NCBI GenBank assembly: GCA_015146655.1
Contig: VKHL01000268.1
Coordinates: 1-21,457 of the forward strand
Direction: 5' to 3'
Source: Ochromonas danica
Taxonomy: Eukaryota > Sar > Chrysophyceae > Chromulinales > Chromulinaceae
Length of the DNA stretch: 21,457 nucleotides
This document shows, one piece after another, positions 1,956-21,457 of the stretch (its first letter is position 1; each line of letters begins with the position of its first letter). The notes beneath the pieces were generated by a model that ran no database searches, was not told where the DNA came from, and worked only from the letters and a program-made list of their open reading frames with translations. A program made the position numbers and the translations under genes.

Positions 1956-3236
1956 TCAAGCTGAAGGGAGAGGAGGACTTACAACGCTTGACTCATGACT
2001 CATCATTTCAAAATGCAGGAAATAAACTCGACTATCGGCATCCAAGTGCATGGAAGCAACTCCATTCACAGAGTAGGCGAGAGAAAACATCTTTGCTGTG
2101 GAGGGTATCTCGATGCCTCTCATTCGTAATTCACACAATGATTCCATCGCGGTGTTGAATTCTGCAACAGACTCGGTCGAGATCTTTAGATCACTAGAAG
2201 ACACATCTGAAGAAGTAGAATGATCACTGCAAGGAATTGAAGAAGGACTGGAGCCAGACATGGAACGAGAGCTCGTGGACGATTCGTCATTGGCTGTCAG
2301 CTCGTCAACAGTCGGTTCAAGAAGAAAATTTAGCACGTCATCATCATCTTGCGAGTCATAACAACTAATATCTGTAGACACAGAGGACGAACCATGGGGT
2401 CCAATTTCATCTCGATGGCCAAGTTTCAACATTGCGGAAGATGGATCAAGAACGGGTATATCAGATGTTCCAGAGAGAGTGAAGTGAAAACTAATCACTC
2501 CAGTTCCATCAGACCGCACACGAAGATTGGTCACACCAACTTCGAAACTGAGATCAGGAGAACTTTCCATACTTCCCCGCCAAAAAGCACTGATATTCTT
2601 CATCCCCAGCACTTCCAAATTTCTCTTCCCCTTTGCCAACATTTCCTCTGAGAAGAGCAGAGAAGTTAGTTTTGATATATGTACAACACATTAATATCTA
2701 ACTCTTTCTTACGTGCACACTGTTGTCGAAAGATAGAGTCTGGGCGGCAAAACTGGAACAAGTACTGGTTCATCAGCTTCTGATCGCAAGAGTTGTAGAC
2801 ATTGCGAAACATGGCAGCATAATCCCTGCGAATGTCATGTTTGAGGATTTTGGGCAGCACGACATGCTTGACAAGACGTCCATTTCTTCTGCGATTGAAG
2901 TAGACGCCACCATGAGGACCCAGAGGAACACTTTTCTCCTCTGAGCGCACACGTTTTTTCTTCCCAGAACTGCCTTGACTGTGAGGCAACCGACAGAATG
3001 GCAATGAGAAGCAATAGTTTAAGATACAACTAGAGCACAAAGGAAAGATGCAGAATCGTACCAAGATCCTTCAGAACCATCCCACAGTGTTTCCACGAGG
3101 TCATCGTCAACGAAAGCTTCCAGTGCAATCACTGTCAACCATACGAGAACAATCGATCATTCACACACCACCGGATTACCTCGAATAAATAAATAAAAGC
3201 ATCACCTTGGAATGACGGTACTTCCGAATTACTCAT
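1956..3236 (-). CDS. Local family member B, possible NTF2/SnoaL-like protein
   Basis: Four exons: 3236-3206, 3131-3062, 2978-2713 and 2647-1956, with introns of 74, 83 and 65 nt. All junctions are GT-AG and the phases agree, giving 352 aa starting MSNSEVPSFQ. Residues about 38-45 are a basic, nuclear-localisation-like patch (GKKKRVR). Then comes a conserved block with a GPHGGVYF turn and a helix DIRRDYAAMFRNVYNSCD, which is how many SnoaL/NTF2-like domains open. Further on, the segment LGMKNISAFWR...PDLSF and RSDGTGVISFHFTLSGT aligns with member D (GLTNIAD...PDLIM and GSKVVIHSTIYGT). A Ser-rich acidic linker follows, and the end reads NGVASMHLDADSRVYFLHF, matching GSFTIYLDNDHRIYRV of member D. 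I do not recognise the family; the fold is inferred. The gene is divergent from the FG-GAP gene. It shares an identical 191-bp cassette with member E at 16.5 kb. Confidence 0.8.
2730..2920 (-). repeat. 191-bp cassette identical to 16497-16687
   Basis: Base-for-base identical by eye to 16497-16687, offset 13767. It lies wholly inside exon 3 of member B and encodes the block from GPHGGVYF to FCRPDSIF. Identity stops abruptly at both ends, where coding sequence and introns of B and E are unrelated. Confidence 0.93.
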
Positions 3237-3659
3237 CTTGTTACCTGTTATCTGAGTCAATCACAATCTCTTTTCTCTCTTTTCATTCCGCCGAACTCAG
3301 AAGACCTGCGCAAAACAATAATTGCAGTGCAGTGACACTGTGGGTAGTTCCTAGTCTATCTAGTCTATCTAGTCTAGACCAGACCAGGTAGTGACAGTCT
3401 TCGAGTCATGATTATACACCCTAGAACATCTTCAACTAATACCATCTATTCTATTGGATTCGTTTGGAAAGTTACTACAGTAGGACCTAGTGATACTTTG
3501 TCACCGTCCGAAATTAAGCTTCCTACATCCAGCAAAAGTCTGCTTTATGGAGTTATAACCAGCATGAGGGAATGTTGGCGGTTTCAATGGCCAAGACGTG
3601 GTGATTGATTTGAAGAAAATTGTCAATCTGTCCTGTTCTCATCCCTATGACCTTGTGTA
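3237..3659. promoter_or_regulatory. Divergent intergenic promoter region of member B and the FG-GAP gene
   Basis: 423 bp between two divergently transcribed start codons. It contains a short tandem repeat (3351-3379) with a 9-bp period, CTAGTCTAT twice and then CTAGTCTAGA. A 66-codon open frame at 3408-3608 has no recognisable features and I do not regard it as a gene. No clear TATA box is visible. Confidence 0.5.
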
Positions 3660-5450
3660 ATGAGCTGTTGTTTTGCTAGCACTAGGTTGCTAACTAGCTG
3701 TCTGTTGCTAGCTTTGCCCCTCTTGCTTTCTCTTCTTCCATCAAGTCATTCTGTTTGGACAGGATTCGATTTGGTGCGCAACCGTTTGCATGCCTTTGGA
3801 TCAAATGACACCACCTCCTTCATCAAGATCACAGCCTCTTCAGTTTGTAGACAAAGCCTCACCTATTCTTGCACCCCTTTGAACATCCCTTCTTCGAACA
3901 GAGAGTCCAACTTCGGCTACGCGGTAGCGAATATTGGCGATCTTGACGGTGACGGACATGATGATATTGCTGTCGGCGCTCCTGGTGACAACATAGACTA
4001 TGGTGGAGACATTGGGCTACAGAAGGCAGTAGGGTCTATCTACATCTTATTTATGAATGAAAATGCAACAGTGAACAATGTTACTCGAATTAGTGGTAAC
4101 ATCAGCAATGGCCCTGTAGTCTACGCTAATGACCAATTTGGTTATTCCATAGCAGCATTAGGTGATTTAGATGGTGATGGTATTGTAGATATCGCTGTAG
4201 GAGCCCCTGGGTATATCATCTCGTCTGCCTACATCCTCTTCATGCATGCCAACGGCACTGTGCGAGAACACTCACTCATTCGAGGGGCTTATCATGGAGC
4301 AATTCCTCCTGGTTATAATGCTTCCTCCTATTCCTATTCCATTAAAGAAAACTATACATACAATGGACCACCTATCACGTATGGTTGTCGTTTTGGTGTT
4401 TCACTGGTTGCAATAGGTGATCTGGATGGAGATAACACAACCGAACTAGCCATCGGTCAAGTGGACTCTTCTACTGGCTTATCGAATGTTTACATTCTGT
4501 TCTTACATCCCAATGGTACCATGAAGAGCTATACTACAATCAGTGCTGGAGTTGGTGGAGGCCCTGACATTTCCACGACGTTTACTGGCTTTGGCTCTTC
4601 TTTGATGTCTTTCCCTGACCTCAACAATGACACTATTCCAGAACTGGTCATTGGTGCACCATTCCTTTATGAGGCAGAGTTATTAAACGTTGATGCAGGT
4701 ACTGTTTTCGTCCTCTTCATGACGAAGCAAGGTGTGGCCAATCACAGCACCACTATCAGCCAAACATCTGCAAAGCGCCTGGGAGTGGGGCCAACTCTTC
4801 CTCTTGTTTCATATGACGAATGTGGATCAAGTTTGACGATGATAGGTGATATCAATCGAGATAGATATAGACAACGTAGACCGAAAGAGCTTTCACCAAA
4901 GCGCTCTATTTCCATCCCTGATATTATCATGGGCTGTCCCCAGAGTCGCTCTTCAAATCTTCCTGGTCGTCTCTTCTTCTTGTTCTTGACTTTATCTGGA
5001 GAGAGCCAAGGATACACTGTTATTCCTGCTTCAAGTGATGCTGCCATCATGGCTAATCATCTGTCGCCATATGATCAATTCGCTCAGTCACTCTCTGCCT
5101 ATGTTGATGTGGATAAGAATGGCTTGAAAGAGATCATTTCTGGAGCTCCAGGGGATGACACCGTGGTAGATAATGGTGGAGCAGTATATATAATATTCCC
5201 GAGAAGGAGAAGACACCATTGGATTCCATTTGATTTCTTGACTTTTATTCTACTCGTTACATTGACACCTGGTCTATTTACCTTAGCTTGTATTGCAGGA
5301 GTTGTTTTCTTTTGTTGGTATTTCCGGCGGGAACCTGATGAGGCAGAGATCATTGTTAAGAAGGCAGGACTGCAGATCACTCCTTATCGACCTCGCTCTA
5401 GGTATAGCAAGAAGTTAGGACAGGTTTATGCAGAACATTATGAACCTTAA
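3660..5450 (+). CDS. FG-GAP repeat (integrin-alpha-like) single-pass membrane protein
   Basis: One intronless frame, 596 aa. It opens with a secretion signal (about residues 8-32, Leu-rich, ending SSHS). Six FG-GAP blades are visible: F-G-Y-A...DLDGDGHDD (about 85-102), DLDGDGIVD (169-177), DLDGDNTTE (254-262), DLNNDTIPE (320-328), DINRD...IPD (397-421) and DVDKNGLKE (483-491). The first three keep the DxDxDG calcium-binding loop; later ones are weaker. Several N-x-S/T sites suit an extracellular, glycosylated face. The fifth blade carries a basic insertion of about 19 residues. A membrane helix at about 526-555 is followed by a tail of roughly 40 residues with Tyr-rich basic motifs (PYRPRSRYSKK, VYAEHYEP). 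FG-GAP beta-propellers form the ligand-binding head of integrin alpha subunits; here no thigh/calf domains follow, so this is a propeller on a stalkless anchor. An AATAAA polyadenylation-type signal lies at 5551. Confidence 0.93.
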   Translation: MSCCFASTRLLTSCLLLALPLLLSLLPSSHSVWTGFDLVRNRLHAFGSNDTTSFIKITASSVCRQSLTYSCTPLNIPSSNRESNFGYAVANIGDLDGDGHDDIAVGAPGDNIDYGGDIGLQKAVGSIYILFMNENATVNNVTRISGNISNGPVVYANDQFGYSIAALGDLDGDGIVDIAVGAPGYIISSAYILFMHANGTVREHSLIRGAYHGAIPPGYNASSYSYSIKENYTYNGPPITYGCRFGVSLVAIGDLDGDNTTELAIGQVDSSTGLSNVYILFLHPNGTMKSYTTISAGVGGGPDISTTFTGFGSSLMSFPDLNNDTIPELVIGAPFLYEAELLNVDAGTVFVLFMTKQGVANHSTTISQTSAKRLGVGPTLPLVSYDECGSSLTMIGDINRDRYRQRRPKELSPKRSISIPDIIMGCPQSRSSNLPGRLFFLFLTLSGESQGYTVIPASSDAAIMANHLSPYDQFAQSLSAYVDVDKNGLKEIISGAPGDDTVVDNGGAVYIIFPRRRRHHWIPFDFLTFILLVTLTPGLFTLACIAGVVFFCWYFRREPDEAEIIVKKAGLQITPYRPRSRYSKKLGQVYAEHYEP

Positions 5451-5866: not shown

Positions 5867-6603
5867 TTAAGGCAGAGGAAGTGCCTCCTCTGTCCCTTGC
5901 GGAAGCATTTCAAATGGAGTGTTCTCTAATAAGAGAGTTGTCGAGAACTCTGGACACACTTGCAACGAGGCCAATCCCGTAATGATGGAGCTCATATCAG
6001 TGATGATTCGGATGGTCTGACACTCGCTTCTGTCTCCATCCTCTGCGAGGCGAGCCATTTTAGCGGCGTGAACTATCTCCATGACTGCTGAAGATGCTCT
6101 AGAAGCACCTGACAGGGAAGTAGTTCGACCAAGCATGTGGAAAGAAAGGGGATCCAACTTCATTCCAACGGTCGACTTCTTGCTCAGACTGCGAAAAGTC
6201 AATCGGTAGAATGGCATCATGCTGCGGCTCTTCTTGTAGCGTGATGTAACAACCATATGTCCCTCATTGACAGAGCTTCTTATCGTGCTTCCTTGATGAT
6301 GTTCTTGTTCTAGATCATCATGAGAAGAACACTTCTTTCGTTTCTGCCCTATCGTTCTCCGGCAGCAGCTGATAAGGACAAGGGATTGTCAGATTGCAAA
6401 GGAAGATTGAGTTGATACCAAAAAATAACTGACCTGTCTTTGGAAGGAATGTACTCAATCTCCACGAGGACGGGGTCTCTCTCAGAAGAAAAACCGTTCA
6501 CGCCTTCAGCATGTTCCAGGTGAGGGTTAGCACGAGATGAACAGCCTCCAAGGACGAAAAACTCTTCTAAAAATCGAGAACTGGTATTCTTTCCTTCCAA
6601 CAT
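5867..6603 (-). CDS. Unrecognised two-exon gene C
   Basis: Exons 6603-6434 and 6368-5867 join over a 65-nt GT-AG intron (donor GTCAGT, acceptor TTATCAG), giving 223 aa. The ATG at 6603 is preceded in frame by TAG two codons upstream, which fixes the start. The junction makes a strongly basic stretch (SCCRRTIGQKRKKCSS), possibly a nuclear localisation signal, followed by a His/Glu segment. The C-terminal half holds a predicted helix (ASSAVMEIVHAAKMARLAED) and a hydrophobic, strand-like stretch (IRIITDMSSIITGLASLQV). I see no known domain and no clear similarity to its neighbours B, D and E, although it lies between them on the same strand. Function unknown. Confidence 0.65.
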
Positions 6604-7172
6604 CAAATCCTAAGAGTGATGGAAGGATCTAACGGTGAGGGGAAAGGATTGTGATTGGAGAGGAAAATGGCGAGGATTGCCTTCTGGCCGGAGGAGGCAG
6701 TCGGGGGCGCGCAACACACACTATTCCCTCTTAAGTTAACATTACACTCCATCGACTTGATCTGACAATTCTACTGTAGTTGTCTACTGTGCTGTACAGA
6801 TGCAGCCTGAGTGGTTTATAAATTGGTGAAGTGCTGAAGTGGTCATCATGTTGTCATCCACAACCTGTTAGACAACTTAATTATAACTTTAACAAATCAA
6901 CAAGACTCTTCTTGGTTAGTTGTACTCATCTTAATCCAATTAACATTCAAACGCCAGAAATGAAAAAAACAACGTCATGTGGAGATTAATTGAAGAAGCT
7001 AAAGGTAGGAAATTAAAGCACCTCCCCAGCAGGAAGAATATACAAAAACAAATTCATAACAAGACGCATAGAATACAGTACAGGCACGGTATAATAGTCG
7101 GCAGAAACAAGAGTATATACAAATATTCAGATATGTTGCTGTAACACGAAACAGCACAGCAGAGTGAAACAC
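6604..7172. other. Intergenic region between genes D and C
   Basis: About 570 bp. The part next to gene C (6610-6720) is GC-richer and includes CGCCATTTTCC on the minus strand, which could belong to the promoter of C. The rest is AT-rich, without an open frame worth reporting. Confidence 0.5.
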
Positions 7173-8262
7173 TCAAATGGAGGCAGGAGAAGTGGTTGGG
7201 CTCTTGTTGGAAGCATCCAGCGGCACGGGATGCACGCCAACGGCATCAGCCACAGGATAAGGTTTGCACTTTAGATTGCCTTCCTTCTCCACACGGTAGA
7301 TACGGTGGTCATTGTCCAAATAGATGGTAAAGCTCCCCACGAACTCCATGGCATAGGAAGCGAGACGAAGCTCAGCTTGTTGTCCGAGACTGAAGATTTG
7401 AAGATAGGTTGGAGCACTCTCCAGCAACTTGGCATGAACACGACGAGGCAATGCCACAGACTTTTCTTCTCCTCGTTCATCACACCAGTAGATCACTTGA
7501 TCAGACAAGGCGGTACCATAAATGGTACTGTGAATAACTACTTTACTTCCTTGTTTAGTTAGATGGCGATGGATTTCTGATCGATTGGCCACCATGATGA
7601 GGTCTGGATAATGATCAATCTCACAACTGACTCGATCTGCAATATTAGTCAAACCATCTACACATTTCACGGGCACTTTTTGATCCAAATCTTGTGCGAA
7701 ATAGTCTTTGAGATGGTAATACTCCACTAGTCTGCAAGAACGAACACAAAAAGTGTGAGCAAAGGCAGAGATCAGCTTTTTGTCACCCGAGTTGATGACG
7801 TTGGACAGCATCGTGGCATACTCCCGGCGGATGTCTCTCTTGAGCATGCGAGGGAAGAGATGGACACGCGGTCGACTTCTCTTCGGCCCAGGCGGCGGTC
7901 GAAAATTGACTTCTTCGCCAAGCACTGCGCGCTCTTCTAGATCTTCCGGTAACATTGCCAATTCTTCTTCAAGATCGAATTGTTGAAAGAGTCTTCTCTT
8001 ACGACAGCTTCTATGCCATTAACAACAAACACAATAAGATGGAGAGGTAACAGACAGAAACAAATAGCTTAGACTACCTGGCCTTCTCGCCCTCTTCTCT
8101 CTTCTCAGTATCTTCCATCATCATTGGTGACACTCTGTCATTAGCAAAGGATAAAAGACACAGGTCTTGTGCGGAAGTGGTGACGTGGTCTGGGAGGACA
8201 GGGAAAACTTCTGTCCCACCTGCCTCCGCCACTGCAAGGAAATCATCGAAGCAGGTTAGCAT
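7173..8262 (-). CDS. Local family member D, possible NTF2/SnoaL-like protein
   Basis: The last exon (8010-7173) and the preceding one (up to 8078) join over a 67-nt intron (8011-8077) with matching phase. With the ATG at 8262 the protein is 340 aa. A basic patch (SCRKRRLF) is followed by an acidic region and then HLFPRMLKRDIRREYATMLSNVINSGDKK, the helix shared with members B and E. Next come VDGLTNIAD...PDLIM, VVIHSTIYGT and, near the end, VGSFTIYLDNDHRIYRV, strands that suggest an NTF2/SnoaL-like cone. The start is uncertain: bases just before 8231 form a strong acceptor (branch-like CTAAC, then TTTCCTTGCAG), with a fitting donor at 8387 (ACTG/GTGAGG). That model uses an upstream exon that runs into the 671-bp duplicated segment and finds no ATG before a stop at 8482. 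Either translation begins at 8262 or the original first exon was displaced by the duplication. Family and function unknown. Confidence 0.72.
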
Positions 8263-8403: not shown

Positions 8404-9074
8404 ACACTCTGGAAATCTGGAATTCAGTCTGGAAATTTGGGCCTCGACGCTAAAGTTCCCACTCTCTCTGTGTGTGCTAGACTAATTAGCGCAGTAGACT
8501 ACTGGTACACGTACACATGGAAGTCTACAGACATCAGTTCACCACTCTTGTACAGTGCTGATGTAGTCTAACTAGTGCACAAGGACTACTATGCTGCACC
8601 AACATCACGGTATGGAATTTCTATGCAAACTACAGTTAATAATTAGACGGACTAACATACTACATGTAACATAAACTATTGGTATTTGGAATGAAGTCTG
8701 GTATTGAAATGGACGGCATGGATCAAGTTGTTGCTTTCCAGAAACAAAGAAGCCACTCCTTCAAGAGTCACTGTCATCGCATTGTGTGTAGCCCTTCTGG
8801 AAGAAGCAACAGTTTTCAATCGAGGAGCAACGCAAAAGCTCGCTCGCGTGAATATCGTAATGGCGAATATCGCCATCAATCTCATGAGGGCAGGAATGGA
8901 CATCCTCTAACAGTGCCAGCAAATCCGACAGACTGCTGTCATCGCCAGCATCATCTCCATCGCTGACATTCCCCATGCTTTGCCCGAAGCGCTGGGCAGA
9001 GACCGCGGCTTCGACCACTTCCACCGGAACTGCACAGGTATTAGAAATCTTAAAGGAGAAGGAAACAAGACTAG
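8404..9074. repeat. 671-bp segmental duplication, copy 1
   Basis: Matches 15579-16249 at a constant offset of 7175 with no indel and two visible base differences (near 9000 and 9019). It contains the 3' half of member E on the minus strand plus its downstream flank. The match breaks off at 9074/16249 in the middle of a coding block, so this copy lacks everything upstream of the 'RSDGT' motif. Confidence 0.95.
8676..9074 (-). pseudogene. Truncated copy of family member E
   Basis: Within the 671-bp duplicate. One frame reads LVSFSFKISNT and the acidic segment SDGDDAGDDSSLSDLLALLEDV; another frame reads GVASLFLESNNLIHAVHF, equivalent to the C-terminal strand of member B. The conserved cassette and the N-terminal part are absent and the frame changes between the two blocks, so this is a non-functional fragment lying immediately upstream of gene D. 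Confidence 0.8.
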
Positions 9075-9154
9075 ACAACAATTGGACCTTCATTAGTGGA
9101 TGGCCATGCACTCTTAACGTATCTGTCTCCCTCTCATGTTGATATTCACACCCC

Positions 9155-9222: not shown

Positions 9223-9316
9223 TTGATAACTGTAAAGCTAAATCAATTGTGTGACACGAACTGTCAAATGCTTGAGACTAGAATTTTGTTTCCCCAAGTC
9301 TTTTCGTGTGCCCAAG

Positions 9317-11278
9317 TGTTTTCGTGTCCACCTCCGAAAATGCAAAAACCGAAAAAGATGGGAAACAACGCGTTGTTTTGGTGTTTTGTTTGTTAATAAA
9401 GCTTGGTGTTCGTCCTTTGGAAATGAAATGAAATCAGATCCAGATGGAAGATCTCTCTGCTGGATCATCAGACTCTGAGAGTGAGGTCAACGATGACGTT
9501 GACTTCACTCTCATGAATCAGAAGAAAAGGAAAAGGCATTTGGATTCCTCCCTTGATTCCGATCTCATTTGTGAGATCAGGGAGCTTTGGAAAGCCGGAA
9601 CTTACAACAAAACAGAGATTTCCAGGTTGCTCTCTGTGACACTAGATACTGTTAGATAGTGAGTTTTACCATCAAACTATTGTTGTCTATGATTTTTTGA
9701 CTGATTATGCATTATGAATTTTTCAGCCACGTTGCTATCATTGAGAAGCATCCTACTCTAACAGGAAGCAGTATGCCAGAAAGAATGAGAAGAAAACACA
9801 TTGTTTCAGCAGCTGAAAAAGCTATTATATTGGATACAGTAAAATCGAGAGACTTCAATATGGATTCAGTAACTGCTGATGAATTTGCAGGATTAGTCCA
9901 TGACGTTAGAAAAGAGCATCTTCATGAACAAAACAAGACTTCGGATCACTTGAAAGAACTGAGCTATAAAACATTAAACAAGTTGAAACGTGAGTTATCT
10001 TATTAATTATTCATTTTTTCTTATCTTCATTTTTCTCACAACAATAATAGGCGAGCTTGTACCAGAGAATATTAAATGCCCAACTTTGAAGAATCGAAGG
10101 AGAGCGGAAGCCTTAAACGACTTACCTTCGGCAATCAGTCAAGTGGCTGTGTCTTTCGCAATTCAAGACATTACACTAGCAAAACAAAGGGAGCAACAAG
10201 AAGCAATAGAGAATTCTGAAAAACTACAAAACAACAACTGTCCGCTAAGGATAATTCCTGAGTTATACTTTAACTTCGACTTCGTGACTTGCATGATGGG
10301 GAATTGGGATAATGCAAAAATTTTACTAACAGAAGGATCAACCAAATTCCTGAATCATTTAAACATATCACCGGGTATAAGTCAAGAATTGCACAAAAAA
10401 AGATCCATAAAGCTCCTATTTATTTCTAATGCTGCTGGATATGTGGTTGGTGCCATTGCTTTCATCAAAGATTATAATATAAACTGTATGGAAAAATACA
10501 AGCTATCCAATCAGCAGCGAGCATTATGGCTCAATAAAGAGTGGGCTATTAAGCGTAGAATACAAATTGAGTTGGAAAGACAAATGGCCGAACGAGAAAA
10601 GGCGGAAAAGTTGACCATTAAGGCTATAAATAAAGCTGTTGAAGTTGCAGTCAGCAGTGATCCTGGAAAGCAGCCCATAGTTAAAGCTTACAAGGACGAA
10701 GAGAATGCTGACTATGTGTTTTGTGGTTCGAACGCATGCAGAAACATACGTAAAGAGTGTTCCGCTGCAGTGGACGACAAATGGAGAGGATGTCCCACAA
10801 ATCATTGCACATTTTGGGTGTGTCCAAAACTCAACTGCCAAAGGCAAATGAAATCTCATATCGAGAAATGCTTGTTTAACTTGACCTTCAAAAGAATCAA
10901 TCCGTTTCCAACCAGCAACACCCGCCGCCTCGTCAATAAAGCTCTTATCATTTGATCATTTGATTACTACTACTAAGCTTCAAACAGCCAATTTCTCGAT
11001 TCATTTGTGCAATTTTAAATACTTACCAAAACAAAAGAATTCTTCGAAGTCCACCAATTGCTGTGATCTTCTACAGAAAACGTGCATCCGTGCTATTTAC
11101 AGAAACAATAGCATCATTCGCCACATTTAGGTCTGTTATCATCATTATTAAACCGGGGAAGCTTTGAACAATGGAATCTAGGCTGAAGTGGTGAGCACAA
11201 GAAAACAGCTTTTATCATATAAAAACTACTTTTTGGTCTTTTTCGGTTTTCGATTCTTCGGTTACAGAAACGAAAACA
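9317..11278 (+). mobile_element. DNA transposon remnant, pogo/Tigger-like (Tc1-mariner superfamily)
   Basis: A spliced DDE-type protein gene is bracketed by inverted repeats: 9317-9359 and 11236-11278, 43 bp each, 32 of 43 positions matching with no gap. Both start TGTTTTCGT when read inward and end CCGAAAAAGA. Weaker similarity continues outward for roughly 50 bp more, so the true ends may lie near 9240 and 11350; I could not fix a target-site duplication. The catalytic middle of the transposase is missing, so this copy is probably not autonomous. Confidence 0.6.
9444..10955 (+). CDS. DDE transposase-derived protein lacking the middle of the catalytic domain
   Basis: Three exons, 9444-9658, 9727-9989 and 10051-10955, with introns of 68 and 61 nt (both start GTGAGT; acceptors TTTTTCAG and AATAATAG). 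The phases agree and give 460 aa. The N terminus is acidic, then comes KKRKRH and a helix-turn-helix-like segment (ICEIRELWKAGTYNKTEISRLL). The block IPELYFNFDFVT...KILLTEGSTK...KRSIKLLFISNAAGYVVGAIAF matches the start of the DDE_1-type catalytic core, where the usual N-x-D-E is followed by K-V-L-V-P-K-G and then the strand ending in A-D/A-G. Here the residue after the Asp is Phe rather than Glu. Directly after this, the later Asp blocks are absent and the frame goes to a coiled-coil segment and a Cys-rich C terminus (FCGSNAC...WRGCPTNHC...CPKLNC), like the zinc-binding tails of some pogo-type transposases. The frame is open throughout despite the missing core. Confidence 0.72.
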
Positions 11279-11531
11279 GTGGAGGAGACGCAAATTGCAC
11301 ATAATCCAAAACGCTAGAATGTCACGTTCGTTGGCAATTAAATTATGCTATCAATGGCCACACACTTTCTTGCAGCTTGTTTGGAATCTGGGAATTTGGC
11401 CGGCCAGGGGCCAACGTTCCAACAACCGCTGTGAATACATCCAACGAATATTCGAAATCCCCAATTTTCGAAGAAACGTGTTTTCCACTTCGAAGAAACA
11501 CGTTGATCTTCAACTAGCCGCCAACGCGGCG

Positions 11532-13346: not shown

Positions 13347-15227
13347 TTAAACAGATTGTTTGCAAACACACTGTTCAAAATTTTGAACCAAAGTATCAAT
13401 TTTATTAACTTGAGCGACTTTGTTTTCCTGAGTGTGCAATGGCTGGACAGAATTCAATTTTCCATCCAAAGGAGTAACAAACACCAAGATTTTTTTGACA
13501 ATTCGTAGATGAATCGATTCAGGATAAGCTAAAATGATATCGTGTAAGCCGTTGACTTTGACAGGATGGCTCTCTCCCACGGTAATCTGCAACACCACCA
13601 AAAGAAAGACAGGCAGACCATCTTGACCAAATCCGGAAGGAAACACACAAAATGCATCACCTGATTCTAAGTTGGATATCTTTGGTTGATAAAGGATATT
13701 TGGCAGAAGCTTCTTGGATTCATCATCTCTTGCGTTCTCTTTCCAGTGATATTCAAGTACAGCCATCGCAGGAAGAGAGATATTGTATGTCTCAGTGGTT
13801 TGCATCGATTGAGCTGATATTGTTTGCCCAGCGATTGGCTTCAACCACAAACAGATCTTTTCAAACAGATTACCAGCCGATCCTCCTCCATAAACTACAG
13901 GGGCAACACCAGCATTGAAGAGATTGATCGGCTCAGCAAGAATGCGAGACTGGTGTTTCTCAGCAATTCTCTTAAAAATCATATCAGAGGCAAAAGAGTG
14001 AATGGCACGACGATCATATAGCCAATCATTGTCAGACGGAGACCACGGAGGATTCATATGCAATAACATATAACTTTTCTCAGGATCCACACTCCCAAAA
14101 CCATGTTTGAAGAAGTAATCAGCAATGATTCCACCCTTCGATTCCAATGCATCTTCCAACTTCAACTGTGAATCTCCCTCAACTCCATCCCAAAAGATAC
14201 TTCTGGGAACCCCACCAAAGAGAATAAACCGATCGATCCATTTCTCGTCATCAGACTCGATGCACAACAGCTCAAAATAACTCCATGTCGGGAGAGTATA
14301 TCGGAATTTTGGTGAGTTGTTCATGGTTTGCTTGTAACGAAGAGGATTGGGAGAGCTAAAGATAAACAACCACTTCCCTTTACAACGAGGCTCTGCCATG
14401 TCTTTAAGATCAGAGAAAATAGGAACTTCAAGCAATGGACATTTTCCATGAGAGGTGATCGAACATTCAAAGACTCCGGGTTGTTCAGCTTCTGGAACAA
14501 AATAATGGTATTCTCCACTCATCAAACCTAATTCCAACACAAATCGCTTATCAGAAAATCTTTCATCAAAAAGAAACCTGAATAGGAAGTAGATGAGGAA
14601 CAAGGACTTTCCAATGCCTGGAACACCAGTAAAGAGAGTGGCTGGTAGTTGACCTTGATAAATCGGCATGAGTAGAGTTACGATATCATAAAGTTTTTTA
14701 TAGCAAGGACGAATGTAAATTCGTGAAGGAATCTTTCCATATCTCTCATAGAACATGACAGGAAGAGTTTTAATTTCCAAATATTCGACTTCATATTGCC
14801 GAACGACACCTTCGGAGTACAAGGGAATGCTGAACTCGATTATTTCACCACGGAAGTCAACAAGGGCTTTGCTTGCCAACATAACACCTGAGAGAAACAC
14901 AATAAAACAACGAAAATGGATGAGAAAACAAACAATGACCTGATGCAGGAGGAAGAGCTGATGAGAGAAAGTTAATGTTAAAACAATAGAAAAGTAACAG
15001 AAGCTACCTCTCAATATCAGATTCTCTTTTTCTTGTAATTGCTCCAGCTGTCTATGTAAACGTTCTTGATCCATTTCTTCATACATCAGGAAGCTGTCAT
15101 CCAAGGTGAGCGCAGGAAGTGGTAATAAGCCCTTTTCCACTGCTTTCTTCATAGCAACACGATAATTTAGCACATCTTTGATCGCTTGGATCTCTTTTCT
15201 AACGTTCTCAATCTCACTTCGATTCAT
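13347..15227 (-). CDS. RHS/Crinkler-type P-loop NTPase with nuclease-like C terminus
   Basis: Best model: exons 15227-15008, 14957-14940 (18-nt microexon) and 14887-13347, introns of 50 and 52 nt, 592 aa. The frame is also open straight through the introns (626 codons). Residues about 1-73 are a coiled coil (IENVRKEIQAIKDVL, RLHRQLEQLQEKEN). The P-loop GVPGIGKS is at about 167-174, then FLIYFLFRFLF, an IFSSPNPLRYK strand, the R-Y-T-L-P-T-W-S-Y-F-EL motif and FGGVPRSIF, all typical of RHS (retrotransposon hot spot) and Crinkler NTPases. The C-terminal part has GNLFE, LESGDAF and FLLVVLQITV...HP, the E, D and QxT signs of the PD-(D/E)XK-like nuclease of this group. No Crinkler leader (LxLFLAK) is present. 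Such proteins are known from oomycetes, trypanosomes, chytrids and some algae, where they act in the nucleus or as effectors; the role here is unknown. The reading frame looks intact. Confidence 0.85.
   Translation of the reverse strand: MNRSEIENVRKEIQAIKDVLNYRVAMKKAVEKGLLPLPALTLDDSFLMYEEMDQERLHRQLEQLQEKENLILRGSFCYFSIVLTLTFSHQLFLLHQVIVCFLIHFRCFIVFLSGVMLASKALVDFRGEIIEFSIPLYSEGVVRQYEVEYLEIKTLPVMFYERYGKIPSRIYIRPCYKKLYDIVTLLMPIYQGQLPATLFTGVPGIGKSLFLIYFLFRFLFDERFSDKRFVLELGLMSGEYHYFVPEAEQPGVFECSITSHGKCPLLEVPIFSDLKDMAEPRCKGKWLFIFSSPNPLRYKQTMNNSPKFRYTLPTWSYFELLCIESDDEKWIDRFILFGGVPRSIFWDGVEGDSQLKLEDALESKGGIIADYFFKHGFGSVDPEKSYMLLHMNPPWSPSDNDWLYDRRAIHSFASDMIFKRIAEKHQSRILAEPINLFNAGVAPVVYGGGSAGNLFEKICLWLKPIAGQTISAQSMQTTETYNISLPAMAVLEYHWKENARDDESKKLLPNILYQPKISNLESGDAFCVFPSGFGQDGLPVFLLVVLQITVGESHPVKVNGLHDIILAYPESIHLRIVKKILVFVTPLDGKLNSVQPLHTQENKVAQVNKIDTLVQNFEQCVCKQSV
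14940..14957 (-). other. Probable 18-nt microexon of the RHS gene
   Basis: The bases between two back-to-back introns, 14958-15007 (starts GTAGCT, ends CTCATCAG) and 14888-14939 (starts GTCATT, ends TCTCTCAG). Included, it adds ALPPAS between ILR and GVMLASK and keeps the frame. A single 120-nt intron that skips it is also in frame. Confidence 0.55.
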
Positions 15228-15380
15228 GAGAAAGTGAAAAATTCTTAATTAAGCAATTCCTTAACAATTCTTGAATTCAAAAAATTCTTTTGTGAAAGCA
15301 AATAAAATATTGCTTTGAAGAGTTCTCAATGACAGTCCTACAGCAATGTGGAATGAGTTCGTGCTGTTCTCGTCACTCTG

Positions 15381-15579
15381 TCTTGGACCTTCCAGGCTAA
15401 GGTTTAGAAAACCCTGATTTCACTATATGAAAACTCTTCTTTAGTCCAACAACCCAACATCGCCTTTCTCTTTTTTGTGCTTTGGAGAAAGGCGATGTTG
15501 GGTCGTTGGGCTAAAGAAGAGTTTTCATATAGTGAAATCAGGGTTTTCTAAACCTTAGCCTCGACCTTCGGGTCCAATA
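15381..15579. mobile_element. Foldback (MITE-like) element with 76-bp arms and 7-bp target-site duplication
   Basis: Arms 15395-15470 and 15485-15560 are inverted copies with two mismatches, separated by a 14-bp loop. Outside them, TTGGACC (15383) and GGTCCAA (15571) extend the symmetry. The element is flanked by CACTCTG at 15374-15380 and 15580-15586. It carries no coding frame. It sits between the RHS gene start and the 671-bp duplicate. A DNA-transposon derivative (7-8-bp target duplication) fits, but the superfamily is not determined. Confidence 0.7.
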
Positions 15580-16249
15580 CACTCTGGAAATCTGGAATTC
15601 AGTCTGGAAATTTGGGCCTCGACGCTAAAGTTCCCACTCTCTCTGTGTGTGCTAGACTAATTAGCGCAGTAGACTACTGGTACACGTACACATGGAAGTC
15701 TACAGACATCAGTTCACCACTCTTGTACAGTGCTGATGTAGTCTAACTAGTGCACAAGGACTACTATGCTGCACCAACATCACGGTATGGAATTTCTATG
15801 CAAACTACAGTTAATAATTAGACGGACTAACATACTACATGTAACATAAACTATTGGTATTTGGAATGAAGTCTGGTATTGAAATGGACGGCATGGATCA
15901 AGTTGTTGCTTTCCAGAAACAAAGAAGCCACTCCTTCAAGAGTCACTGTCATCGCATTGTGTGTAGCCCTTCTGGAAGAAGCAACAGTTTTCAATCGAGG
16001 AGCAACGCAAAAGCTCGCTCGCGTGAATATCGTAATGGCGAATATCGCCATCAATCTCATGAGGGCAGGAATGGACATCCTCTAACAGTGCCAGCAAATC
16101 CGACAGACTGCTGTCATCGCCAGCATCATCTCCATCGCTGACATTCCCCATGCTTTGCCCGAAGCGCTGGGCAGGGACCGCGGCTTCGACCACCTCCACC
16201 GGAACTGCACAGGTATTAGAAATCTTAAAGGAGAAGGAAACAAGACTAG
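15579..16249. repeat. 671-bp segmental duplication, copy 2
   Basis: Partner of 8404-9074 (two differences seen). This copy continues upstream into the rest of member E, so it is probably the parent locus. Its left end coincides with the right end of the foldback element. Confidence 0.95.
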
Positions 16250-16760
16250 TTCCATCCGAGCGGGTGTGCAGCATCACGTCATTCATCTGCGCACACAGTC
16301 CACCCAAGCCTCAATACGACACTGCCAGAAAAACTCGATCGCTGGGATGCCTAATAGAGAGATATTTTGCTTTCCTCTGCTAGCAAGATACTCTAGAAAG
16401 ACACATATTATTATTCAATAAGACCTCTCATAGCTATTAACTAATATTAATATGATATTTAATATTATTAATACCTGCACACAAAACTTCTCTTGGAAGA
16501 TAGAGTCTGGGCGGCAAAACTGGAACAAGTACTGGTTCATCAGCTTCTGATCGCAAGAGTTGTAGACATTGCGAAACATGGCAGCATAATCCCTGCGAAT
16601 GTCATGTTTGAGGATTTTGGGCAGCACGACATGCTTGACAAGACGTCCATTTCTTCTGCGATTGAAGTAGACGCCACCATGAGGACCAACAGGAGCATTA
16701 TTCAGAGTTGACACATCACGTTTTCTTTTTCTTCTTCCAGCTGTGTCGAAAACATTTTCT
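15851..16760 (-). pseudogene. Local family member E, probably disrupted
   Basis: Paralogue of member B. The 5' exon reads TAGRRKRKRD (basic patch), APV and then the 191-bp cassette from GPHGGVYF to DSIF, ending FCVQ at a donor (GTATTA, 16482). The next exon reads GKQNISLLGIPAIEFFWQCRIEA, matching B's GKRNLEVLGMKNISAFWRGSMES, then must change frame (one base fewer than in B) to reach HTRSDGTSLVSFSF. A second frame change separates the acidic linker from the C-terminal GVASLFLESNNLIHAVHF. No start codon precedes the basic patch in frame, and the exon boundary near 16400 has no phase-compatible splice pair that I can find. At least two frame breaks argue for a pseudogene, though undetected introns or assembly error remain possible. 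Confidence 0.6.
16497..16687 (-). repeat. 191-bp cassette identical to 2730-2920
   Basis: Second copy of the exonic cassette shared with member B. Flanking coding sequence, introns and 5' region differ completely between the two loci. Confidence 0.93.
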
Positions 16761-17237
16761 GTAGTGGCTATTCGTATTGGAGATGTCAGAGAGACTGGAG
16801 AAGAATGAATGCTTCACACAAAACATCGTGCCGTACTATCACATCAAAATCTATACTCATGACCTCAATACTGTCCCAAACGTAACTCCCAGAGGTCGGA
16901 ACAGCAGGCAAAACTCATTAGTCTACTGTTCCTTCATTCTCCCAACAGAAACTGTGAAGTTAAGCCGTTTCCCTTCCCTCTCAACACAGCAACACAACAT
17001 CCAACATGACCCTCTGGCAGTCTGGGACCCTTTGTTGTGGTCATCTCTCCTTCATAATGGAATCTTTTTTCACTGAGAGAGAGAGAAAGAAAATAAGAAA
17101 GAAAAAATTGGAGAGGTGTTTATCATTTTGAGAGAATTTGTCCTTCATTGATCATCTATAAAAATATTTTTTGTCTTAGTTAGCTGTTTTGGTTGTTATT
17201 CTTCTTGTTGTTGTTGTTGCTGTTGTTTTTCATAGCG
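16761..17237. promoter_or_regulatory. Intergenic region with TATA-like box upstream of the helical-repeat gene
   Basis: Divergent spacer between member E and the gene at 17238. TATAAAAA at 17157-17164 lies about 75 bp before the start codon, followed by a GTT-repeat leader. An open frame of 99 codons (16777-17076, +) has no recognisable content; part of this stretch may include the lost 5' exon of E. Confidence 0.45.
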
Positions 17238-19384: not shown

Positions 19385-20476
19385 TTAATCATAACTCGCG
19401 CCTTTCTCAAGCGCTTCTAACTCGCGAAGTTTGTAGCCAACCACCATTTGCCACATACAGAGTTGAGCAAGTTGCGTGACACTTTGCTGCAGAACCACTT
19501 CAGGTCCTTGAGAGTCAACGCCCAACTTCTCCATGAGAGCATTCACAATAAGCTGAATAGCTTGAAGAATATCTCCTGACATATCCGCCGTCAGTCGCTG
19601 CATCTCTTTCTCAGGCAAAGCTTGAATATATGTTAGAAGATTTGCTTTGAGTTCATTCTCTCGTTGTGATCGAATGGCCGCGAGCTCCTTCCGCAAGGCA
19701 GTCACTTCGCGGCTCAGAGCAGACGTCAGCTCTTGTACATCTACACTGAACTCATCACCACGAGAGGAACGAAACCTCACTTCTCCTTCCACTTGACCTT
19801 CTTCTTGGATAATATCAATCGACTCTCCCTTTTCCGTGAGCAGGGTAGCTGGAGGCGGTGGCTTGGGTAATCCTTTCAACGTTCTTGTCAAAGACATTCT
19901 ATACTCCGCATTCTTAAACATGTAACCCGTGATCTGCATCTGATAGAGTAAGTTGGCAAGCTTAGCAGAAGTGGTGAGCAAGGAGGCGTCCAAGGCGTAG
20001 TTGGGCAGGCTGCCGAATATGTTCATGACAGTGGTCTTGGCAGCTTCCTGCACATGCAGAGGAGCTGTCTTGGAGAAACTCTTCAGCATTTCATTTGGAG
20101 CTAATTCTTCAATAAATCGGAAATAGCGAATAGCATCTTTACTTCCCGTGTTTAATATCTTCTCTGTCTGATCGGTCGTGAGGGAGGCGATGGCGTCAGG
20201 GTGAGTGGGGATGATAGCCTTGCTTTGACTTGCTTGCTGAGGTGACGCCTGTAATCCATCATAGACGGGTGCTAGGAAAGTGGGAGGCGGGAAGGGAGAC
20301 CGTGTGTCGTTCCTTCTTGCACCGTTTCCGTCACTAACCACACCTGTGCGAAAGGAAATAGTTCGACCACGGCGCAAACCCGGTCCAAAACAGTGTTGAC
20401 AATGGAAAAAGGACCTTCCCTGTTCAAGGAAGACTAGTACAATAAGGACTAGAATGCGAGAGGCAATGGACGACAT
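19385..20476 (-). CDS. DUF760 family plastid protein (UV-B-induced protein At3g17800-like)
   Basis: 363 aa from the ATG at 20476; an ATG 14 codons upstream is less likely because the signal peptide starts at MSSIASRILVLIVLVFLEQGRS. The residue after this is Phe (FFHCQHCF), then a basic Arg/Gly-rich stretch, which together read as the bipartite signal-plus-transit presequence of red-type complex plastids. Residues about 113-200 (IRYFRFIEELAPNEMLKSFSKTAP...LANLLYQMQITGYMFKNAEYRM) are a clear DUF760 domain. A second, more diverged copy lies at about 278-350 (LLTYIQALPEKEMQRLTADMS...LAQLCMWQMVVGYKLRELEA), linked by a coiled coil (250-275). The plant homologue is a chloroplast protein of unknown biochemical role. 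A 72-nt in-frame stretch (20272-20343, GTGTGG to TTTCCTAG) could be an intron, which would shorten the protein by 24 residues. Confidence 0.88.
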   Translation of the reverse strand: MSSIASRILVLIVLVFLEQGRSFFHCQHCFGPGLRRGRTISFRTGVVSDGNGARRNDTRSPFPPPTFLAPVYDGLQASPQQASQSKAIIPTHPDAIASLTTDQTEKILNTGSKDAIRYFRFIEELAPNEMLKSFSKTAPLHVQEAAKTTVMNIFGSLPNYALDASLLTTSAKLANLLYQMQITGYMFKNAEYRMSLTRTLKGLPKPPPPATLLTEKGESIDIIQEEGQVEGEVRFRSSRGDEFSVDVQELTSALSREVTALRKELAAIRSQRENELKANLLTYIQALPEKEMQRLTADMSGDILQAIQLIVNALMEKLGVDSQGPEVVLQQSVTQLAQLCMWQMVVGYKLRELEALEKGASYD

Positions 20477-21457
20477 TGTCGCGGACACAGTCCAACAGTC
20501 CAACAATCCAACAATCAATTACTACTAATTACCGCTCATTAGCCACATTATTCCGATCGAAAAGTCCACTTATTTGAATTATAACTTGTAATTTTGGAAT
20601 TGGCATAGGTGGTTTCGGAATTTCGTGTTTTTGCTATTCCGTATTCGTTTTTCTATTCTGTCTCACTCCTCCCCAAGAAGAATTTTAAACAACAATTGCA
20701 ATATTAAAACAATGGCAATTACAGAAACAATTCCTTGGCTTACTCTACTGCCAAAGAAACAACTAAATTTAGCTAATCTGCTCTTCCAACAACACCACAT
20801 AAAATCTTAATCCCAGTGCACAACCGTGTTAATGCATGGATGAATCGAATTATAATTGTATAGACTGTCAAGGCTGAAGCATCACGAAATATAGAGCACC
20901 AAGACATATCCATAATATGTCAAAGAGCAATCATTCTTTATGAATTGCTTGGTAAGAACAAAGAATCGCCTTTAATCAAAGCAGAGAACCCGACAAGTTA
21001 GGCTCTCCTCAATCATCACTTGTAACACTGGTGTCATCAGGTGTACAAGAATGTTGTAATAACTGCATTAACAATCAAAACGCAAAAACAACAAACAAAT
21101 TCTCTTCGTTCCAAATATGGAACAAAACAGCACATCAAGTTTTGGAACTGAACAAGATAAGCATCACTGCTTATTCTTGATTGCTGAATTGGAAGTCTAA
21201 CAAAACGAAAACTGACTATCCAACTACAAAATCAAATCAAATCACAGAGGGAGAGGGAGAGGGAGAGAGCACAATAGCAGTTGTCACTCGTGGCGAGCAG
21301 TTGCTCAACCATCTATGAATAAGAACAATCTATGTCTCTTTCCTCTTGATATGTAATCAAACACATAGACAATCAAGACTTCTTCTTGACTTGGTTCACA
21401 TCAACACCACGACCATAACAACAAAATCTAAATCACCGCGACACCAAAAATGTCTCA
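20477..21457. other. Intergenic region to the end of the window
   Basis: AT-rich. A GAGGGAGAGG microsatellite lies at 21247-21269. A minus-strand frame ending in TGA at 21373 reads GRGVDVNQVKKKS after an acceptor-like site near 21410; it may be the last exon of a gene that begins outside the window, but I cannot support that further. The upstream 100 bp (20477-20580) should hold the promoter of the DUF760 gene. Confidence 0.4.

What the first reader, a model, noticed from the sequence alone, without database searches (positions are those of the whole stretch)
2730..2920. Identical 191-bp exonic cassette in two otherwise diverged paralogues (with 16497-16687)
Members B and E share 191 bp with no visible difference, silent sites included, while coding sequence just outside, introns and promoters are unrelated and the rest of the proteins align only weakly. 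The boundaries are sharp. That is the mark of recent ectopic gene conversion or cassette exchange limited to the most conserved domain. One donor looks like a pseudogene, so a broken copy may be seeding a live one or the reverse.
Basis: seen in the sequence. Interest (0 to 1): 0.75.

Follow-up and report, generated by a model that had tools for sequence, protein, structure and literature searches.

The report
Recent gene conversion between diverged paralogues
In a stretch of eukaryotic, probably algal, DNA, two old and otherwise very different sister genes share one perfectly identical 191-letter piece, most likely because one gene was recently overwritten with a copy from the other; this is a known kind of event, made more interesting by a second copied piece that ends at a large DNA hairpin.

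Summary
The 191-bp identity (2730-2920 = 16497-16687) is real, exact and maximal. All 61 degenerate codons in it agree, 23.8 expected if silent sites were saturated (P about 1e-27). In the flanks silent sites look saturated (8 of 26 agree, 9.0 expected), and gene D shows no silent constraint on the domain. Programmed cassette exchange has no support; 'unrelated' flanking coding sequence is wrong for exon 4.

The finding omits a second tract: 8404-9074 = 15579-16249, 2 differences in 671 bp, a truncated copy of E's 3' half. Its E-side end lies 2 bp from a 195-bp foldback hairpin (15383-15577). E has one frame change relative to B and perhaps a second; whether it is a pseudogene is likely but not settled. 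Direction of the 191-bp transfer is unresolved, with a weak lean to B into E. No whole genome was held, so neither assembly artefact nor family-wide tracts could be tested.

The parts
2730..2920 (-). 191-bp conversion tract, copy in gene B: 63 whole codons of exon 3, GPHGGVYF...RPDSI
   Evidence: Exact match to 16497-16687; all 61 degenerate codons identical
16497..16687 (-). 191-bp conversion tract, copy in gene E
   Evidence: As above
1956..3236 (-). Gene B, 4-exon model: 3236-3206, 3131-3062, 2978-2713, 2647-1956; 352 aa; introns 74, 83 and 65 bp, all GT-AG
   Evidence: Splice sites chosen by eye; the joined model translates without internal stop. No transcript evidence
15878..16813 (-). 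Gene E (limits approximate), paralogue of B: exon 3 holds the cassette; exon 4 matches B in one frame (16387-16298), then another (16271-16212), and perhaps the first again (15997-15878)
   Evidence: 62 nt against 63 in B between the FW and RSDGT anchors; tblastn hits, the C-terminal one only E = 0.007 at 22.5% identity; C-terminal stretch against B 0 of 2000 shuffles in the first frame and 96 of 2000 in the second, but against D 352 and 34 of 2000
7173..8018 (-). Gene D, main ORF (281 aa), third paralogue, with a diverged form of the cassette domain at 7859-7746
   Evidence: tblastn to the cassette E = 8e-11, 50% of 38 aa; silent codons 9 of 18 identical, 7.1 expected
8404..9074 (-). D', truncated copy of the 3' half of E plus downstream sequence
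   Evidence: 671 bp, 2 differences (9000/16175 and 9019/16194) from 15579-16249
15579..16249 (-). Segment of E that matches D'
   Evidence: homology to B continues across 16249 in E (16271-16212), whereas the match of D' to E stops at 9074
15383..15577 (.). Foldback (hairpin) element, arms 15391-15470 and 15485-15564, 96% complementary, 14-nt spacer; TTGGACC at both outer ends; CACTCTG at 15374-15380 and 15580-15586, possibly a target-site duplication
   Evidence: arms; fold; arm alignment; the flanking CACTCTG was read by eye in the sequence

Best explanation
The 191-bp identity is a recent ectopic (non-allelic) gene-conversion tract between two old paralogues, B and E, about 13.8 kb apart in the same orientation. 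Shown: exact identity including silent sites, silent sites at the saturated level outside, homologous exon 4 downstream. Inferred: a break or stalled fork in one gene was repaired by copying the most conserved domain from the other, and the tract is confined to that domain because only there was enough homology left. E looks like a hub: a 671-bp piece matching it also lies at 8404-9074, at a compatible sequence age (2/671 against 0/191). That tract's E-side end lies next to a long hairpin, so the hairpin may have broken or blocked synthesis there. Direction of the 191-bp transfer is unresolved; weak lean B into E, because E carries a frame change (perhaps two) in exon 4 yet its cassette is intact.
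For: Exact and maximal tract. P about 1e-27 under independent silent sites. Cassette 61 of 61 degenerate codons identical against 23.8 expected; flanks 8 of 26 against 9.0 expected, summed over three stretches; B against D inside the same domain 9 of 18 against 7.1. Exon-4 homology 0 of 1000 shuffles in two stretches. Second tract involving the same gene E. Hairpin next to the second tract. Length is in the usual range: about 500 bp in one large yeast study, 200-300 bp in most follow-ups, 287-296 bp in rodent cells (PMC3924818, passages).
Against: Conversion usually needs high similarity: about 92% (MESH), with a minimal segment above 200 bp in mouse and 337-456 bp in humans (PMC3966225, passages). 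Aligned flanks here are 44-53% identical and the island is 191 bp, so the domain must have been much more alike than its surroundings beforehand, or the copying was not classical homologous repair. The flank test rests on 26 codons. Homology on the N-terminal side is weak (50 of 1000). No strains, reads or genome-wide family. The hairpin lies about 0.9 kb from the 191-bp tract, its 14-nt spacer exceeds the loop of under 9 nt to which Mre11 attack is limited in yeast (PMC8053094, abstract), and its role is inference.
Confidence: 0.82

Rival explanations
1. Replication-based template switching, perhaps set off by the hairpin, rather than classical homology-driven conversion. Both copied pieces would be products of the same kind of event.
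For: The 671-bp match of D' to E shows no obvious flanking homology: self-BLAST finds none and local alignments give only short matches of 12 and 16 columns (no shuffle control). So homology-poor copying probably happened in this window. The tract's E-side end lies next to the hairpin. Flanks of the 191-bp tract look too diverged for normal homology-driven repair. For var chimeras with several close breakpoints the authors favour template switching (PMC3936766, passages).
Against: The 191-bp piece sits in register with homologous exon 4, which homology-driven repair explains more simply. The two events may be unrelated. The 10-mer TTGGACCTTC shared by the D' right flank and the hairpin end is rare in the window but not convincing as an alignment (11 of 200 shuffles).
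Confidence: 0.25
2. Assembly or polishing artefact: reads of one copy overwrote the other during polishing, or loci were chimerically joined.
For: 191 bp is near short-read length; E has a one-base length difference from B in exon 4, as noisy assemblies do. No reads were available.
Against: A chimeric join needs the repeat to exist already. Overwriting needs a strongly similar second copy and I would expect ragged edges. Both are arguments, not tests.
Confidence: 0.1
3. Extreme purifying selection on the DNA or RNA itself (overlapping gene, regulatory element) keeps the two copies identical without exchange.
For: The + strand of the tract is also open (ORF 2702-2944).
Against: Gene D, with the same domain, agrees with B at silent codons near the saturated level (9 of 18 against 7.1 expected). 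Rfam finds no family in the window at its gathering scores (0 matches). Boundaries are sharp to the base.
Confidence: 0.03

Closest known systems
Ectopic (interlocus) gene conversion between paralogues
   Same: Short, sharply bounded, non-allelic tract with silent identity inside and saturated-looking divergence outside; length within the usual range (PMC3924818, passages)
   Different: The flanks are far more diverged than the roughly 92% similarity suggested for efficient conversion, and the tract is shorter than the minimal segments given for mouse and human (PMC3966225, passages)
Secondary-structure-associated ectopic recombination in Plasmodium var genes
   Same: Multigene family, exchange between paralogues, strong DNA secondary structure near breakpoints (PMC3936766, passages)
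   Different: No antigen function shown, only one hairpin and two tracts here; the var structures are 50-mers, this is a 195-bp foldback
Fragile inverted repeats in yeast
   Same: Inverted repeats and quasi-palindromes cause breaks (PMC8053094, outline and abstract; PMC3855049, abstract in search listing)
   Different: Here fragility is inferred from position only; arms are 96% complementary with a 14-nt spacer, longer than the loops of under 9 nt that Mre11 attacks in yeast (PMC8053094, abstract)

Membership tests
Ectopic gene-conversion tract | Near-identity including silent sites within a bounded tract | tested here: met
   191 of 191 bases; 61 of 61 degenerate codons
Ectopic gene-conversion tract | Diverged but homologous flanks on both sides | tested here: inconclusive
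   Exon 4 side met: 0 of 1000 shuffles in two stretches. N-terminal side weak: 50 of 1000
Ectopic gene-conversion tract | Cassette tree disagrees with flank tree across the family | not testable with these tools
   No whole genome held; no relatives confirmed in viral contigs or genome contigs
Programmed cassette exchange | Fixed exchange boundaries, dedicated donor array or recombinase sites | tested here: inconclusive
   The two tracts involving E have different ends, and the repeat listing (24 nt or longer) shows no repeat at the 191-bp tract's ends other than the tract itself. Shorter boundary sites were not looked for
NTF2-like / SnoaL-like domain (protein family of B, D, E) | Scores above the Pfam SnoaL_2 cut-off | tested here: not met
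   Spliced B 14.6 bits, E 0.05, cut-off 27; D no hit. In PDB the one SnoaL-like hit is last of 7, E 0.88; the best hit is a methyltransferase, E 0.045
NTF2-like / SnoaL-like domain (protein family of B, D, E) | Cone-shaped alpha+beta fold | tested here: inconclusive
   Single-sequence AlphaFold model of D has mean pLDDT 33.2, unusable
Foldback / hairpin transposable element | Long terminal inverted repeats filling the element, a target-site duplication, several copies | tested here: inconclusive
   Arms 80 nt, 96% complementary; 7-bp CACTCTG flanks read by eye; no other copy in the window by self-BLAST; no genome to count copies

The most novel reading that the evidence does not exclude
A hairpin element parked beside a decaying paralogue turns it into a local source of copied segments: hairpin-triggered, homology-poor template switching pastes pieces of it into neighbouring loci and trades its conserved domain with a live paralogue across flanks far too diverged for ordinary gene conversion, so that a mobile hairpin drives concerted evolution of one domain only.
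Probability: 0.13. Interest if true: 0.6.

Novelty: new member of a known kind. Interest (0 to 1): 0.38.

Why it matters
If true, it is a clean natural example of conversion between paralogues whose silent sites look saturated outside the tract. It bears on how little homology ectopic conversion needs outside model organisms. The second tract's end next to the hairpin makes a specific, testable link between a foldback element and where copying stops. For family evolution it warns that the most conserved domain, often the only alignable one, may carry a different history from the rest of the gene.

Tried and rejected
Whole-genome route: the file request and the own-genome search both failed because none is offered or held for this window. 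Relatives: the cassette protein found none in viral contigs (7 pattern matches, none confirmed) or genome contigs (87, none confirmed); the B/D alignment none in viral contigs (141, none confirmed); an exact 23-base cassette pattern none in viral contigs; the P-loop ORF none there (2, none confirmed).

Family identity: Pfam gives for B only sub-threshold SnoaL_2 matches (12.3 to 14.6 bits, cut-off 27). The E exon-3 ORF has a sub-threshold efThoc1 match with a better E-value (0.0089, 15.2 bits, cut-off 27), over a stretch that runs into the intron. NCBIfam gave one sub-threshold match for the B domain and none for D or E exon 4; PHROGs one weak match for D (E 0.024). The AlphaFold model of D is unusable, so no fold search was run and the second structure job was not used. 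Alignment A2 of window ORFs aligned the partial sequences poorly and was not used.

Considered and rejected: exon insertion into unrelated genes (exon 4 is homologous); nucleic-acid ultraconservation (gene D's silent codons); D' as a complete gene (its match to E stops at 9074 where E goes on). Gene C (5867-6609), looked at as a possible family member, showed no convincing similarity to B (813 and 344 of 1000 shuffles) and a weak one to D in one of two pieces (36 and 948 of 1000). The shared 10-mer TTGGACCTTC was not counted as evidence. That call made 8 comparisons of flanks with the hairpin: the lowest were 7, 11 and 11 of 200 shuffles (B's left tract flank on both strands, D' right flank on +), the other five 50 or more, so none stands out after eight tries.

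Changed on checking this report: the second frame change of E is now given as possible only, because D's C-terminus favours the other frame (34 against 352 of 2000); with it the claim that E was already broken when D' was copied is withdrawn to a possibility, and the odds of the novel reading were lowered from 0.15 to 0.13.

Literature: six paper searches; I make no claim that this locus or family is absent from print. PMC3924818, PMC3966225 and PMC3936766 were seen as passages, PMC8053094 as outline and abstract, PMC3855049 as the start of its abstract in a listing.

Full report
What is there. The window is eukaryotic DNA (43% G+C) with short introns; the 4-exon model of gene B, with splice sites chosen by eye, has introns of 74, 83 and 65 bp, all GT-AG. 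A DUF760 gene at 19385-20518 (E = 6.5e-36) hints at a plastid-bearing alga; that DUF760 proteins go with plastids is recalled, not tested. No whole genome is held for it. No Rfam family reaches its gathering score and ARAGORN finds no tRNA. Three related genes lie on the minus strand: B (1956-3236), D (main ORF 7173-8018) and E (about 15878-16813). They share a domain in which D is 50% identical to B over 38 residues (tblastn E = 8e-11).

The observation. 2730-2920 and 16497-16687 are identical over 191 of 191 bases and differ at the next base on each side. The tract holds 63 whole codons, 61 of them with synonymous alternatives, and all 61 are the same. Under the window's codon usage 23.8 would be expected to agree if silent sites were saturated, and the chance of complete agreement is about 10^-27. 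With no change in 40 silent sites, the upper 95% bound on silent divergence is 0.075.

The flanks. In three aligned stretches outside the tract, codons for the same amino acid agree in 3 of 9, 4 of 13 and 1 of 4 cases, 8 of 26 in all, where saturation predicts 9.0. The sample is small, but B and E are evidently old paralogues. They are homologous beside the tract: exon 4 aligns at 10/30 and 13/25 identical residues, each with 0 of 1000 shuffles as good. The N-terminal side is weak (50 of 1000). The tract therefore most likely replaced a homologous stretch in place rather than being an exon dropped into an unrelated gene. Gene D suggests that the domain's silent sites are not constrained: B and D agree in 9 of 18 cases against 7.1 expected.

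Is E broken? E has 62 nucleotides where B has 63 between two conserved anchors in exon 4, and homology moves to another frame there. Further on, the C-terminal part of B matches E in the first frame again (0 of 2000 shuffles, against 96 of 2000 in the second frame; tblastn E = 0.007 at 22.5% identity). The same test with D's C-terminus points the other way: 352 of 2000 in the first frame and 34 of 2000 in the second. So one frame change is clear and a second is possible. The clear one lies outside the 671-bp tract and has no second witness, so a sequencing error is not excluded. The possible one lies inside that tract and would be shared by its copy D'. An undetected intron could also explain a change. 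E is likely, not certainly, a pseudogene.

A second tract. The finding as given omits that 8404-9074 equals 15579-16249 with 2 differences in 671 bp. In E the homology to B continues past 16249 (16271-16212); the match of D' to E stops at 9074. D' is thus a truncated copy of the 3' half of E and its downstream DNA. The two tracts are compatible with the same age (0/191 and 2/671; my inference). Beyond the ends of D', self-BLAST finds no further match to E and local alignments give only short matches (12 and 16 columns, no shuffle control), so D' looks like an insertion without flanking homology.

The hairpin. A foldback element occupies 15383-15577: arms of 80 nt, 96% complementary, 14-nt spacer, outer ends TTGGACC. 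By eye it is flanked by CACTCTG on both sides. The 671-bp tract starts at 15579, two bases on. I did not compute the chance of this coincidence; it looks small, and if it is not chance the hairpin was present and ended the copying. That is inference from position. Inverted repeats are break-prone in yeast (PMC8053094, outline and abstract; PMC3855049, abstract in listing), and gene conversions in human disease genes tend to occur where stable hairpins can form (PMC3966225, passages). Against this, Mre11 attack in yeast is limited to loops under 9 nt (PMC8053094, abstract), and the spacer here is 14; the same abstract describes other break pathways.

Mechanism. The most likely account is ectopic gene conversion between B and E. 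The difficulty is homology: efficient conversion is put at about 92% similarity, with minimal segments above 200 bp in mouse and 337-456 bp in humans (PMC3966225, passages), and the aligned flanks here are 44-53% identical. Either the conserved domain was already an island of high identity, or copying used template switching, as argued for var genes (PMC3936766, passages). D' suggests that homology-poor copying did happen in this window. Direction: E has a frame change (perhaps two) in exon 4 and none in the cassette, which leans weakly to B into E; it is far from decisive.

Family. B's exon 3-4 region resembles the SnoaL_2 profile at 14.6 bits, E = 0.05, below the cut-off of 27, and D has no match. 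In PDB the one SnoaL-like hit is the last of 7 (E 0.88). An NTF2-like fold is a lead only; the model of D was unusable (mean pLDDT 33.2). No relatives were confirmed in viral contigs or genome contigs; these are viral and prokaryotic collections, so this says little about the family's spread.

Verdict. It is a new instance of a known process. The added value is the second tract and its end next to a hairpin.

Noticed in passing
9301-11294: Probable DNA transposon: imperfect inverted repeats (9301-9358 and 11237-11294, 72% complementary) around ORFs 9701-10006 and 9987-10955, the latter with a cysteine-rich end by eye and no Pfam hit. It lies just beyond D'.
   Followed up: partly
13347-15248: 633-aa ORF on the minus strand with a P-loop-like stretch (GVPGIGKS, by eye) and only a sub-threshold Pfam match; it recalls Crinkler or retrotransposon-hot-spot type ATPases, from memory only.
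   Followed up: partly
3651-5450: 599-aa open frame with FG-GAP repeats (integrin-alpha-like), E = 3.2e-29, and a C-terminal hydrophobic stretch that looks like a membrane anchor (by eye).
   Followed up: no
1-136: Tandem array, 37-bp unit, 3.6 copies, 97% matches, at the very start of the window.
   Followed up: no
281-1606: GGA-rich repeats giving runs of serine or proline in minus-strand ORFs.
   Followed up: no
9082-9091 and 15383-15392: TTGGACCTTC occurs only twice in the window: 8 bp beyond the end of D' and at the outer end of the hairpin (0.03 expected); weak as an alignment (11 of 200 shuffles).
   Followed up: yes
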